This document shows, piece after piece, positions 27,196-32,821 of a stretch of DNA of 64,000 bases. Within the stretch, counting starts at the first letter, position 1; every line of letters begins with the position of its first letter. Origin of the DNA: Arundinibacter roseus (GTDB lineage Bacteria; Bacteroidota; Bacteroidia; Cytophagales; Spirosomataceae); the NCBI RefSeq assembly GCF_004348825.1, contig NZ_SMJU01000008.1, forward strand, positions 186,001 to 250,000, read 5' to 3'. Both the position numbers and the translations under genes were made by a program. The notes beneath the pieces were generated by a model. It had not been told where the DNA came from. It did no database searches and saw nothing but the letters and a program-made list of their open reading frames with translations.

Positions 27196-27576
27196 ATGAT
27201 TGAAATAACCTCTGATAACCGCTTACGCAGTCTGATTGTCGTGGGCGACCGCGTCCTTATTAAACCCAAAAGCCCAACCGACCGAACCAACAGCGGTCTT
27301 TATCTGCCTCCCACAGTTACGGAAAAAGAGCAGGTTCAGACGGGTTACGTCATAAAAGTCGGCCCCGGCTATCCTATTCCCTCTTCGTCAGAAGACGAGC
27401 CCTGGAAAGAAACCGAAGAAAAAGTGAAGTATATGCCGCTGCAAGCCAAGGAGGGCGACCTTGCCATTTATTTGCAGCGCAACGCCATTGATCTGGAATA
27501 TGATGGCGAAAAGTACGTTATTCTACCACAGGCATCTATCCTGATGCTGGATCGAACTGAAAATCTATTCGATTAA
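27196..27576 (+). CDS. GroES-like co-chaperone family protein
   Basis: A 126-residue protein with a Cpn10/GroES fold: VVGDRVLIKPKSPTDRTNSG and the closing DLEYDGEKYVILPQASILML match the first and last strands of GroES. It is about 30 residues longer than standard GroES because of an insertion after VGPGYPIPSSS, and the mobile loop is altered. No groEL is adjacent, so this is probably the second, divergent GroES-like protein found in many Bacteroidota rather than the main co-chaperonin. Whether it binds GroEL is unknown. The DUF4174 gene follows after 23 bp, probably in the same transcript. Confidence 0.83.
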   Translation: MIEITSDNRLRSLIVVGDRVLIKPKSPTDRTNSGLYLPPTVTEKEQVQTGYVIKVGPGYPIPSSSEDEPWKETEEKVKYMPLQAKEGDLAIYLQRNAIDLEYDGEKYVILPQASILMLDRTENLFD

Positions 27577-29555: not shown

Positions 29556-29670
29556 AAAAATTAAATTTCTATTGCCGTCTGTTTTTATACTAATAGACTA
29601 TTTAATTGAATATAACTCAGCGGATTAGTACTAAACCCACTAAATTATAGTCAGTTCTACATAGGTTTTG

Positions 29671-29678
29671 TAATTTTG
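29671..29678 (+). promoter_or_regulatory. Candidate -7 element of the serine biosynthesis genes
   Basis: TAATTTTG fits TAnnTTTG, leaving a leader of about 54 nt before ATG 29739. No good TTTG is found at -33. The leader shows no strong hairpin. Confidence 0.35.
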
Positions 29679-29738
29679 CATGAATAGTAGTAGTCATTCC
29701 AAATTAACGAGGTAGCTTACCCATTTTTACCATCCTGC

Positions 29739-31643
29739 ATGCTAACGCAAACACTCAATCCCACGTACATTGTCATTGATTTTGACAGCACATTTACCAA
29801 AGTGGAAGGCCTCGACGAGCTGGCCCACATTGCTTTGGCGGGTCATCCTGACCGCGAAAATCTGGTTCAGCAAATCCGCGACTTAACCGACAAAGGCATG
29901 AACGGCGAAATGTCTTTTGCCGATGGTCTGCGCCGTCGCATTAGCCTGCTTTCGGGAAACCGCTCGCACATTGACCTTCTGATTGAGTACTTACGAACCA
30001 AAATTTCGGATTCTTTTCAACGAAACAAAGCGTTTATAGCCGACAATACCGACCATATTTATGTGGTTTCCAGCGGTTTTAAAGAGTTTATCGTGCCAAT
30101 CGTTACGGAATTGGGCGTGCGGGAAGATCACGTCTTTGCCAACGAATTTATATTTGATGCCGATGGTACGATAATCGGCATCGACGAAGCGAACGTACTG
30201 GCAAGTGATGGCGGCAAAATCAAGCTGCTTCGTAGCCTCAACCTGACGGGCGATGTGTACGTAATTGGCGACGGCTATACCGACTACGAACTTCGTGAAT
30301 CGGGCCTTGCCAACCGTTTTTATGCCTTTACTGAAAATGTAAATCGCCCGCGCGTTGTTGAAGTGGCCGACCACGTGTCGGGTTCTCTCGACGAGTTTCT
30401 GTACGACAACCGACTGAGCCGCAGCCAATCGTATCCCAAAAGCCGTATCAAAGTCTTATTGTTGGAAAATGTGCATCCGGCAGCCGTAAAGGCGTTTGAA
30501 GATGAAGGCTTTAAGGTGGAATTTGTAAAAGGGGCCCTGGACGAAGATGAACTTTGCGAACGCATCAAAGATGTATCGATCATCGGGATTCGTTCCAAAA
30601 CCATCATCACCAAGCGCGTGCTCGAAAGCGCCAACCGATTGATGGCGATTGGAGCGTTTTGCATTGGCACCAACCAAATTGACCTCGAAACGGCAACTGA
30701 ACGCGGCGTGGCCGTTTTTAACGCACCATATAGCAACACCCGCTCCGTAGTAGAGCTCGCAATTGGTGAAATGATCCTGCTGATCCGAAATATCGTGACC
30801 AAGAGCAATCAGATGCATCAGGGAATCTGGGACAAATCGGCCAACGGAAGCTTTGAAGTACGTGGAAAAAAACTTGGCCTTGTAGGCTACGGCAACATCG
30901 GTACGCAGCTTTCGGTGGTGGCTGAGGCGCTCGGCATGGAAGTTTATTTCTATGACGTTGTGGAAAAACTAGCGATCGGAAATGCCCGGAAAGTACGCAG
31001 CCTGGAAGAGTTACTGAATCTGGCAGATGTCGTGAGTATGCACGTAGATGGCCGCAAGGAAAACACCAACATCATTGGCAAAAAGGAATTTGAGCAAATG
31101 AAAGACGGCGTGATTTTCATGAACCTTGCCCGTGGGCATGTGGTGGATATTCCTGCCCTGGCCGAAGCGATTCGGAGTGGAAAAGTGGCAGGTGCTGCCG
31201 TGGATGTTTTCCCTAAAGAGCCCAAAACCAACGATGAAGCTTTTGAAAGCGAATTGGTGGGTCTTTCCAACGTAATTCTTTCTCCACATATTGGCGGAAG
31301 TACCGAGGAAGCGCAGGCGAATATTGGCTACTTTGTGCCGGGGAAATTGCTCGAATACATCAACAACGGCAGTTCGTATGGCAGCGTTAATTTCCCCGAA
31401 GTGCAACTGCCCAAGTTGGGAGACTCGCATCGGCTGCTGCATATTCATGCGAACGTTCCGGGAGTTCTGGCCAAATTGAACAGTATTTTTGCCAAACATC
31501 ATATCAATATTACGGGCCAATATCTCAAAACCAATGAGCAGATTGGCTATGTAATCGTTGATATTTCAAAAACATATACCGAAGAATTTATTCAGGAAAT
31601 AAAAGCCGTAGAAGGTACGATCCGGTTTAGAATGCTTTATTAG
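29739..31643 (+). CDS. serA: Fused phosphoserine phosphatase-like HAD domain and D-3-phosphoglycerate dehydrogenase
   Basis: A 634-residue two-enzyme protein. Residues 1-220 are a SerB-like HAD phosphatase: DFDSTF (Asp14, Asp16) is motif I, YVVSSGFKEF motif II, GGKIKLL holds the lysine, and IGDGYTDYEL is the C-terminal acidic motif. Residues about 235-545 are phosphoglycerate dehydrogenase: VGYGNIGTQLSVVAEALGM binds NAD, IGIRSKT and NLARGHVVD hold arginines, and SPHIGGSTEEAQ holds the catalytic histidine. An ACT domain (about 562-634) could mediate serine feedback. Steps 1 and 3 of the phosphorylated serine pathway would thus be in one chain, and the aminotransferase for step 2 is the next gene. 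Activity of the HAD part is inferred from motifs. Confidence 0.9.
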   Translation: MLTQTLNPTYIVIDFDSTFTKVEGLDELAHIALAGHPDRENLVQQIRDLTDKGMNGEMSFADGLRRRISLLSGNRSHIDLLIEYLRTKISDSFQRNKAFIADNTDHIYVVSSGFKEFIVPIVTELGVREDHVFANEFIFDADGTIIGIDEANVLASDGGKIKLLRSLNLTGDVYVIGDGYTDYELRESGLANRFYAFTENVNRPRVVEVADHVSGSLDEFLYDNRLSRSQSYPKSRIKVLLLENVHPAAVKAFEDEGFKVEFVKGALDEDELCERIKDVSIIGIRSKTIITKRVLESANRLMAIGAFCIGTNQIDLETATERGVAVFNAPYSNTRSVVELAIGEMILLIRNIVTKSNQMHQGIWDKSANGSFEVRGKKLGLVGYGNIGTQLSVVAEALGMEVYFYDVVEKLAIGNARKVRSLEELLNLADVVSMHVDGRKENTNIIGKKEFEQMKDGVIFMNLARGHVVDIPALAEAIRSGKVAGAAVDVFPKEPKTNDEAFESELVGLSNVILSPHIGGSTEEAQANIGYFVPGKLLEYINNGSSYGSVNFPEVQLPKLGDSHRLLHIHANVPGVLAKLNSIFAKHHINITGQYLKTNEQIGYVIVDISKTYTEEFIQEIKAVEGTIRFRMLY

Positions 31644-31662
31644 AAAATACAAAATAACCGCA

Positions 31663-31726
31663 GGAAAGGAATGAGAGACCAAAGCAGGGAACAGGCGTTT
31701 CCGATTTGCCCGCTTCATTCCTTTCC
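31663..31726 (+). repeat. Long inverted repeat between serA and the aminotransferase gene
   Basis: GGAAAGGAATGA (31663-31674) is the perfect reverse complement of TCATTCCTTTCC (31715-31726). The 40-nt loop holds a smaller pairing (GGGAA with TTCC). It fills most of the gap between the two serine genes and has no trailing T-run, so it looks more like an mRNA processing or attenuation structure than a plain terminator. Confidence 0.6.
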
Positions 31727-31741
31727 GCATTTATAGACATT

Positions 31742-32821
31742 ATGCAAAACATCTACTTTACTCCCGGCCCGGCGGCTCTTTACCCCACGTTTGAAAAACA
31801 CATAAAATCATTTATTGACCGGCAGTTGGGTTCTATTTCCCATCGTAGTCAGCAATACCGCGACCTGCATCGCTTTACCGTGGAGCAACTACGTACGCTC
31901 CTGTCGATTCCAACTACGCATCAGGTATTGTTTTTGGGATCAGCTTCCGAAGCCTGGGAACGCATTTTGCTGAATTGTGTAGAGCACGAAAGTTTTCATT
32001 TGGTCAACGGTTCGTTTTCGCGGAAGTTCTACGATTACGCTCAGGCGCTGCACAAGTTTGCGCACATCTACGAGAAACCCATGGGTGAGGGCTTTGATGC
32101 CGCTGAAATCGAAGTCCCGGCCTACGCTGAGCTAATCTGTACCACGCACAACGAAACAAGCGCCGGAGTGCAGATGAAGCCTGCCGATATCCATAAACTG
32201 AAAAATCGCCATCCGGATAAGCTGATAGCGGTAGATATGGTATCATCGGCGCCCTATCCGGCTTTGGATTTTGGTTTGGTCGATACTGCGTTTTTCTCCG
32301 TTCAGAAAGCGTTTGGACTTCCGGCCGGTTTGGGTGTTTGGATTGTGAATGAAGCCTGTTTGGCCAAAGCCGAGCGCCTGCGACAGTATGATAGCCTCAC
32401 GATTGGGGCACATCATGACCTGCCTACGCTGTGGAAAAACGCAGAGAAGAACGAAACGCCCGCCACGCCTAACGTGATGAGTATCTATTTATTAGGAAAA
32501 ATAGCGGAGGATTTGAACCGAATCGGTATTGAAACGATACGGAAAGAAACCGAACAAAAAGCCGCAATTTTATACAATACCCTAAAAAATAGCAGCGTTT
32601 TTGATCCCTTCGTGACCGAAACCCGGCATCAGTCCCAAACGGTTGTAGTGGCCAACACGCGCAAAGACTCGTCGGTAGTAATCAGCAATTTGAAAGGGAA
32701 AGGAATGATGGTAGGTAGTGGCTATGGCCCATACAAAGGAAAGCAAATCCGGATTGCCAATTTCCCGGCAACCTCTTTCGAGCAAATTGATACACTTGCC
32801 CGCGCATTGAACGAGGTGTAA
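31742..32821 (+). CDS. Class V aminotransferase, probable phosphoserine aminotransferase
   Basis: A 359-residue PLP enzyme. NIYFTPGPAALYP is the class V N-terminal signature, LICTTHNETSAGVQM and AVDMVSSAPYP form the cofactor pocket, and the Schiff-base lysine is Lys189 in FFSVQKAFGLPAGLG. Overall it resembles the SerC-like branch more than serine-glyoxylate aminotransferases. Its place directly after the SerB-SerA fusion supports conversion of 3-phosphohydroxypyruvate to phosphoserine. ATG 31742 is the start; an in-frame opening at 31706 would run through the inverted repeat. No recognisable terminator follows. Confidence 0.85.
   Translation: MQNIYFTPGPAALYPTFEKHIKSFIDRQLGSISHRSQQYRDLHRFTVEQLRTLLSIPTTHQVLFLGSASEAWERILLNCVEHESFHLVNGSFSRKFYDYAQALHKFAHIYEKPMGEGFDAAEIEVPAYAELICTTHNETSAGVQMKPADIHKLKNRHPDKLIAVDMVSSAPYPALDFGLVDTAFFSVQKAFGLPAGLGVWIVNEACLAKAERLRQYDSLTIGAHHDLPTLWKNAEKNETPATPNVMSIYLLGKIAEDLNRIGIETIRKETEQKAAILYNTLKNSSVFDPFVTETRHQSQTVVVANTRKDSSVVISNLKGKGMMVGSGYGPYKGKQIRIANFPATSFEQIDTLARALNEV

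What the first reader, a model, noticed from the sequence alone, without database searches (positions are those of the whole stretch)
29739..32821. Two genes may encode the whole phosphorylated serine pathway
One 634-residue ORF joins a SerB-like HAD phosphatase (motifs DFDST, SSGF, GDGYTD all intact) to a complete phosphoglycerate dehydrogenase with an ACT domain. The next ORF is a class V aminotransferase with its PLP lysine. Steps 1 and 3 would share a chain, and step 2 is adjacent. This would channel or balance the pathway, and the ACT domain could control both ends.
Basis: partly seen in the sequence, partly recalled or inferred. Interest (0 to 1): 0.65.

Follow-up and report, generated by a model that had tools for sequence, protein, structure and literature searches.

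The report
Fused first-and-last serine synthesis enzymes
In this bacterium one protein appears to carry both the first and the last enzyme of serine synthesis with one serine sensor, and in several relatives the first enzyme seems to have died while the last enzyme and the sensor were kept, which suggests that the sensor may also control the last step.

Summary
Window 29739-31643 encodes a 634-residue chain: an HAD phosphatase (about 1-226), then a complete type II phosphoglycerate dehydrogenase with ACT domain (228-634). A SerC-like aminotransferase follows. The genome (probably Cytophagales; nearest named record a Persicitalea MAG) showed no other SerB-like HAD enzyme, no other SerA over cut-off and no canonical SerC.

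The phosphatase is no SerB equivalog (66 bits, cut-off 144), but keeps the catalytic residues and those aligned with human phosphoserine phosphatase's substrate site. It seems to replace SerB: 43 of 395 phylum genomes carry this family, 111 a weaker SerB-like match, none both in that search. Some relatives have the two parts as adjacent genes.

The sensor was probably kept for the phosphatase, or for assembly.

Limits: a second SerC-like paralogue could do step 2; adjacency holds in 49 of 76 named loci; channelling has no support; no activity was measured. Eight searches of an open-access library listed no paper on the fusion, but GapMind data may cover it. New variant of a known kind.

The parts
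29739..30416 (+). HAD-IB (C1-cap) phosphatase domain, residues 1-226; predicted L-phosphoserine phosphatase (step 3)
   Evidence: PF12710 and TIGR01488 over cut-off; best solved relatives 3kd3 and human PSP; D14, D16, R67, S111, K160, D178, D182 invariant and E23 at least 90% in 28 domains
30420..31640 (+). Type II phosphoglycerate dehydrogenase, residues 228-634 (step 1): substrate-binding, NAD-binding and ACT domains; R465/E494/H517 correspond to E. coli R240/E269/H292
   Evidence: NF008759 675.6 bits against cut-off 404; E. coli PGDH over nearly its whole length; model mean pLDDT 90.2, best fold matches E. coli PGDH
31404..31640 (+). ACT domain (about residues 556-634) with H570, N572, N590 (E. 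coli serine contacts H344, N346, N364)
   Evidence: PF22629; residue table; role of the E. coli residues from PMC6300728 (passages)
31742..32821 (+). SerC-like class V aminotransferase (SERC1), predicted phosphoserine aminotransferase (step 2), ATG start
   Evidence: PF00266; closest solved chain 3ffr 'Phosphoserine aminotransferase SerC', E 2.4e-108; under all serC cut-offs
31644..31741 (+). Intergenic stretch that folds into a long hairpin (z -5.3); no second good copy in the genome

Best explanation
The 634-residue protein is a bifunctional serine-pathway enzyme: its C-terminal part oxidises 3-phosphoglycerate (step 1, SerA) and its N-terminal HAD part dephosphorylates L-phosphoserine (step 3, SerB). 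In this genome it is probably the main provider of both. The SerC-like neighbour, or its paralogue on contig 41, supplies the transamination between them. The single ACT domain binds serine at its dimer interface, as in E. coli PGDH, and is expected to inhibit the dehydrogenase; because it is retained in relatives without a working dehydrogenase, it probably also sets the phosphatase's activity or assembly. Shown here: architecture, residue conservation, absence of HAD alternatives in this genome, distribution. Inferred: both activities, death of the dehydrogenase in relatives, and the serine control.
For: (1) PGDH half: equivalog model over cut-off; catalytic R/E/H and serine-site H/N/N present. 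(2) HAD half: best solved relatives are 3kd3 (PSP-like) and human PSP; catalytic residues invariant in 28 domains; R67 kept in every row that covers it and E23 in all but L115; M54 and F60 mostly kept. (3) Own genome: the three other TIGR00338 hits are P-type ATPases, the two other free PF12710 proteins are beta-phosphoglucomutase-like and YjjG-like; no other SerA over cut-off. (4) Replacement: of 395 phylum genomes 43 have this HAD family, 111 a weak match, 0 both (12.1 expected); in family f55 9 against 21, with both kinds in genus g63. (5) HAD and PGDH as separate neighbouring genes in 4 genomes of genus g58 and in G616. (6) All 13 of 55 genomes without a near-canonical SerC carry the intact fusion and a SerC-like protein. 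(7) SERC1 downstream on the same strand in 49 of 76 named loci.
Against: The HAD part fails the serB equivalog cut-off and the neighbour fails every serC cut-off. No activity was measured. SerB-like HADs have been reassigned to histidinol phosphate in other bacteria (PMC5764234, passages). Non-HAD phosphatases remain (three PF00300 matches; a HisJ-family PHP phosphatase). One fusion genome of the same family, G242, has a further SerB-like HAD that outscores its fusion (101.7 against 76.8 bits with TIGR00338); read by eye it is a glycosyltransferase-HAD protein, and the HAD-domain query did not pick it up, so that query can miss diverged SerB-like proteins. Intact fusions also occur in genomes that keep a canonical SerC and short dehydrogenases.
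Confidence: 0.8

Rival explanations
1. The HAD domain acts on another phosphate (for instance histidinol phosphate, a sugar phosphate or a side product of the pathway), and phosphoserine is dephosphorylated by a non-HAD enzyme.
For: HAD score under the serB cut-off; a HisJ-family PHP phosphatase lies directly before the second SerC-like gene on contig 41 although a HisB N-terminal domain over cut-off is present in a 374-aa frame; PF00300 proteins exist.
Against: Residues aligned with the substrate site of human PSP are matched; the family and the SerB-like matches never occurred in one genome among 154 matching genomes; it is fused or adjacent to SerA and often followed by SerC.
Confidence: 0.13
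2. The ACT domain is kept in the dehydrogenase-dead relatives only as a dimerisation or folding module; serine does not control the phosphatase.
For: Nearly all conserved ACT residues are kept, not only those of the ligand site (17-18 of 18), and part of the substrate-binding scaffold stays as well.
Against: H344, N346 and N364, which contact serine in E. coli PGDH (PMC6300728, passages), are unchanged in 20 of 20 such sequences.
Confidence: 0.4
3. The real SerC of this genome is the contig 41 paralogue (SERC2), and the adjacent gene does another transamination.
For: SERC2 is the only SerC-like protein found in 5 of the 13 genomes without near-canonical SerC.
Against: SERC1 is the only one found in 4 of the 13; it is closer to solved chain 3ffr (2.4e-108 against 4.7e-53) and lies behind the fusion in 49 of 76 named loci.
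Confidence: 0.25

Closest known systems
E. coli type II D-3-phosphoglycerate dehydrogenase (SerA; 1psd, 1yba)
   Same: Nearly whole length aligned, domain order, catalytic and serine-site residues
   Different: No phosphatase domain
Human L-phosphoserine phosphatase (1nnl, 6hyy) and 3kd3 phosphoserine phosphohydrolase-like protein
   Same: HAD fold, catalytic motifs, aligned substrate-site residues
   Different: The matched chains are 201-225 aa, without ACT or dehydrogenase
ACT-SerB (Mycobacterium SerB2 type)
   Same: A phosphoserine phosphatase with ACT domains; the M. tuberculosis enzyme responds to serine (PMC10564941, passages)
   Different: Two N-terminal ACT domains; here one C-terminal ACT of PGDH type
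Oomycete and brown-algal PGDH-PSAT fusion
   Same: Two enzymes of the same pathway on one chain (PMC2705460, PMC5715807, passages)
   Different: Joins steps 1 and 2 in eukaryotes; here steps 3 and 1 in Bacteroidota
GapMind candidates of Echinicola vietnamensis and Pedobacter
   Same: Echvi_1811 is listed as a possible diverged, apparently essential SerC; no SerA or SerB gap was seen for these two organisms in the passages read (PMC7311316)
   Different: The passages do not describe a SerB-SerA fusion; supplements were not readable here

Membership tests
Type II phosphoglycerate dehydrogenase (PRK11790/NF008759) | Equivalog score over cut-off over the full model | tested here: met
   675.6 bits against 404, model 3-410 of 410
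Type II phosphoglycerate dehydrogenase (PRK11790/NF008759) | Catalytic R240, E269, H292 and serine-site H344, N346, N364 | tested here: met
   roles of the serine-site residues, catalytic residues and numbering recalled
Type II phosphoglycerate dehydrogenase (PRK11790/NF008759) | Dehydrogenase activity and serine inhibition | not testable with these tools
   needs enzyme
SerB phosphoserine phosphatase (TIGR00338) | Equivalog score over 144.15 | tested here: not met
   66.4 bits, 69 bits in the genome search
HAD-IB family phosphatase (TIGR01488) | Subfamily score over cut-off and HAD motifs | tested here: met
   58.8 against 45; D14/D16, S111, K160, D178/D182
Phosphoserine phosphatase by function | Acidic and basic residues that align with human PSP E29 and R65 (role and numbering recalled) | tested here: met
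   E23 and R67
Phosphoserine phosphatase by function | Activity on L-phosphoserine | not testable with these tools
   needs enzyme
SerC (TIGR01364, TIGR01366, NF003764) | Score over any curated cut-off | tested here: not met
   103.8, 110 and 110.4 bits against 443.6, 401.65 and 253
SerC (TIGR01364, TIGR01366, NF003764) | SHR and QK (PLP lysine; motif role recalled) aligned with solved phosphoserine aminotransferases | tested here: met
   alignments to 3ffr and 1w23

The most novel reading that the evidence does not exclude
The ACT domain that came in with the dehydrogenase has become the serine sensor of the phosphatase. Fusion put the first and last steps under one sensor; in two or three lineages the dehydrogenase then died or lost its NAD domain, leaving a serine-gated phosphatase - a second, independent origin of an ACT-controlled phosphoserine phosphatase, with the fused enzyme of this window as the living intermediate in which one serine site governs both ends of the pathway.
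Probability: 0.4. Interest if true: 0.68.

Novelty: new variant of a known kind. Interest (0 to 1): 0.52.

Why it matters
It would fill the phosphoserine phosphatase step for many Bacteroidota without canonical SerB, and it gives a natural series (separate neighbouring genes, fusion, fusion with a dead dehydrogenase, phosphatase plus sensor) in which to test how an allosteric domain passes from one enzyme to another. It also warns that annotation by best hit could call the protein SerA and leave SerB as a gap.

Tried and rejected
A second serB in the genome: sought with TIGR00338 and PF12710; the other hits were P-type ATPases (one of them is also the fourth PF12710 hit), a beta-phosphoglucomutase-like protein and a YjjG-like one. 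Substrate channelling: rejected as unsupported, since the joined steps are not consecutive and SerC adjacency varies. The HisJ-family phosphatase beside SERC2 as phosphoserine phosphatase: kept only as a rival; HisB is present, so its job is open. The three PF00300 proteins were counted, not studied. Mutual exclusion in the 295-genome set alone: 60 against 9 with no overlap, not significant. The intergenic hairpin as a repeated element: other matches in the genome are 14-22 bases at E 0.8 or worse. Promoter and terminator scans gave no excess over shuffles. Searches of papers by locus tags found nothing or GapMind alone; by fusion names nothing. The fold search with the fusion model lists only dehydrogenases in its 50 rows, so it says nothing about the HAD part; the one with the Mucilaginibacter model does. 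Dropped or thin rows: G086 (weak partial match) and the 9 SerB genomes are not in the 60; L116 (broken frame, G057) was left out of the tree; G120 and G181 were not in the residue table; the separate dehydrogenases of the 4 split genomes were not in it either; four named loci too short downstream are left out of the 76. Position R240 in L096 reads as a gap and G.
Full report
OBSERVATION. The reading frame 29739-31643 (+) codes for 634 residues. Pfam finds an HAD domain at 11-185, the two halves of a D-2-hydroxyacid dehydrogenase within 239-551 and an ACT-type domain at 566-629. NCBIfam scores the C-terminal part as phosphoglycerate dehydrogenase, 675.6 bits against a cut-off of 404, and the N-terminal part as HAD-IB family phosphatase, 58.8 against 45; the serB equivalog model gives 66.4 bits, well under its cut-off of 144.15. 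The next gene is a class V aminotransferase; an ATG at 31742 fits homologues better than the listed TTG at 31706. It is under the cut-off of every serC model, but its closest solved chain is 3ffr, named phosphoserine aminotransferase SerC, at E 2.4e-108. A model of the fusion has mean pLDDT 90.2 and matches E. coli PGDH best.

IDENTITY OF THE HAD DOMAIN. Its best solved relatives are 3kd3 (phosphoserine phosphohydrolase-like), human phosphoserine phosphatase and 1f5s, also a phosphoserine phosphatase. D14, D16, R67, S111, K160, D178 and D182 are invariant in 28 aligned domains, and E23 is kept in at least 90%. E23 and R67 align with the residues that bind the amino and carboxyl groups of phosphoserine in human PSP (role and human numbering E29/R65 recalled). 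R67 is kept in every row that covers it, E23 in all but L115, which has D. M54 and F60 are kept in most rows, with I, V, L, Y or E in some.

IS THERE ANOTHER SerB, SerA OR SerC IN THE GENOME? The genome (5.83 Mb, 44 contigs, completeness 100) gives four TIGR00338 matches: this HAD domain and three P-type ATPases. PF12710 gives this domain, one of those ATPases, a beta-phosphoglucomutase-like protein and a YjjG-like nucleotidase. No other protein passes the SerA cut-off; four shorter dehydrogenases score 63-171 bits. There is no canonical SerC; two diverged SerC-like proteins are the window's (SERC1) and one on contig 41 (SERC2), 33% identical. SERC2 directly follows a HisJ-family PHP phosphatase, while a HisB N-terminal domain over cut-off is present elsewhere. 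Three PF00300 matches are also present. So non-HAD rivals for step 3 are not excluded.

DISTRIBUTION. In 295 class genomes 60 carry the HAD family strongly (70 matches less 10 weak ones). SerB passes its cut-off in 9 of 295, none of the 60; this alone is not significant (1.8 expected, P 0.13). One of the 60, G242 of the window's own family, has a further HAD that scores 101.7 bits with TIGR00338, more than its fusion (76.8); by eye it is a glycosyltransferase joined to a SerB-like HAD, as are two near-cut-off proteins in G029 and G229. The HAD-domain query did not report it, so that query can miss such proteins. In 395 phylum genomes 43 have the family, 111 have a weaker match, and none has both; 12.1 would be expected by chance, P about 3e-7 without correction for relatedness. 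Most of the weak rows shown have frames of about 406-479 aa, the length of ACT-SerB; the list was cut, the number of scored candidates per genome was capped at seven, and only nine were tested as SerB by model. In family f55, 9 genomes carry the fusion, 21 the weak match and some neither; genus g63 has members of both kinds. That is the pattern of one enzyme replacing the other.

SPLIT AND FREE FORMS. In 4 genomes of genus g58 the HAD (frames 233-236 aa) and the dehydrogenase (376-414 aa) are separate neighbouring genes; on the tree this is one change nested among fused forms, so probably a fission. In G616, outside the class, the two are also neighbours. Five other genomes outside the class have the HAD domain without PGDH in the 3-6 kb held on each side, with all ten tested HAD residues kept.

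THE DEHYDROGENASE DIES, THE SENSOR STAYS. Of the 60 class genomes, 36 (the window included) have an intact R240/E269/H292 triad; G120 and G181 were not in the residue table; L103 is cut by a contig end; L084 has R240G and a less conserved substrate-binding part; 4 are split; 16 have a dehydrogenase that looks dead or is missing (9 of f42, 3 of f13, G042, and G057, G013, G094 of f16). 'Dead' is inferred from sequence. In f42, and in the two Mucilaginibacter loci, the NAD-binding domain is missing and a substrate-binding remnant runs into the ACT domain. In f13 the triad reads Y/E/N, Y/D/R and Y/K/R; in G042 E269 stays but H292 is Q. Against the residues invariant in the 36 intact proteins, the 16 dead proteins (14 of these genomes and the 2 Mucilaginibacter loci) keep 34-36 of 36 in the HAD domain (26 in the broken L116), 17-18 of 18 in ACT, but 6-13 of 32 in the first substrate-binding part and 0-24 of 54 in the NAD domain. 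The serine contacts H344, N346 and N364 of E. coli PGDH (PMC6300728, passages) are kept in all 16 and in four further such sequences (L246, L248, L258, L264): 20 of 20. On the HAD tree dead forms need three changes: one clade of f42 and f13 (support 99/97), G042, and G013. The last sits on a long branch in an open fork, so two separate losses are firm and the third is likely. None of the 16 class genomes has a SerA over cut-off; in 12 of the 16 a short dehydrogenase lies beside a canonical or near-canonical SerC. But more than ten genomes with an intact fusion have such a pair or a canonical SerC too, so redundancy does not force the loss. A model of the 430-residue Mucilaginibacter protein (pLDDT 90.6) matches 3kd3 and human PSP best.

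STEP 2. Of 55 genomes examined, 13 have no SerC-model match above 113 bits: the 11 of the window's order in the set and 2 of f4; all 13 carry the intact fusion. Eight of the 13 have SERC1, nine have SERC2, four have both, none has neither (with the match list). So either seems able to serve. Among named loci SERC1 lies downstream on the same strand in 49 of 76, in 47 within about 620 nt, touching or overlapping the fusion's end in about 6; it was not found in the 4 kb or more held downstream in 27 (gaps are extrapolated from alignments).

MECHANISM. Most likely the chain catalyses steps 1 and 3, with SerC acting between. PGDH equilibrium is unfavourable (recalled), so an irreversible phosphatase made in fixed ratio would pull the pathway, and one serine site could shut both. 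Direct channelling is not suggested: the joined steps are not consecutive. In M. tuberculosis SerB2 serine is thought to act through N-terminal ACT domains (PMC10564941, passages), so an ACT-controlled phosphatase is known in kind; here the ACT would be at the other end and of PGDH type.

WHAT IS IN PRINT. Eight library searches ran; no listed title or abstract start names a SerB-SerA fusion. Known pathway fusions are PGDH-PSAT in oomycetes and brown algae (PMC2705460, PMC5715807, passages). The PGDH review PMC6300728 contains neither 'fusion' nor 'fused'. GapMind (PMC7311316, passages and part 1 of section 7) lists Echvi_1811 as a possible diverged, apparently essential SerC in Echinicola vietnamensis (Cyclobacteriaceae); no SerA or SerB gap appears for it or for Pedobacter (Sphingobacteriaceae, like Mucilaginibacter) in the passages that I saw. 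Its supplements could not be read, so these genes may already be assigned there. The gut-microbiome survey PMC9026213 (passages) describes other SerB and SerC replacements, not this one in those passages.

VERDICT. The more interesting fact is the repeated apparent loss of the dehydrogenase with retention of phosphatase and serine site.

Noticed in passing
G000 contig 41, L060:9629-11548 (-): A second SerC-like aminotransferase directly follows a HisJ-family PHP phosphatase, although the genome has a HisB N-terminal domain over cut-off; the pair's function is open.
   Followed up: partly
window 31644-31741: The gap between fusion and aminotransferase folds into a hairpin with 13 consecutive pairs, -31.1 kcal/mol, z -5.3, with no second good copy in the genome.
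   Followed up: partly
window 29670-29682: A TAATTTTGC box about 60 nt before the fusion's start resembles the Bacteroidota -7 promoter element (consensus recalled, not tested against chance; sequence).
   Followed up: no
window 27196-27576: A Cpn10/GroES-like protein of 126 residues that passes the Pfam cut-off but no listed GroES cut-off.
   Followed up: no
L171 (record titled Flavobacterium sp. SUN052): Its HAD domain is 67% identical to the window's and the fusion is followed by SERC1, as in Spirosoma and its kin; the record may be mislabelled.
   Followed up: no
L116 (G057): The HAD-ACT gene is broken into two frames, and the same genome's SerC is also in two pieces, which suggests sequencing errors or decay.
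   Followed up: no
L117:2443-3912 (-), L118:2595-3974 (-), L119:2569-3942 (-): Glycosyltransferase-like N-terminus joined to a SerB-like HAD C-terminus (102-120 bits with TIGR00338), in G242, G029 and G229; read by eye only.
   Followed up: partly
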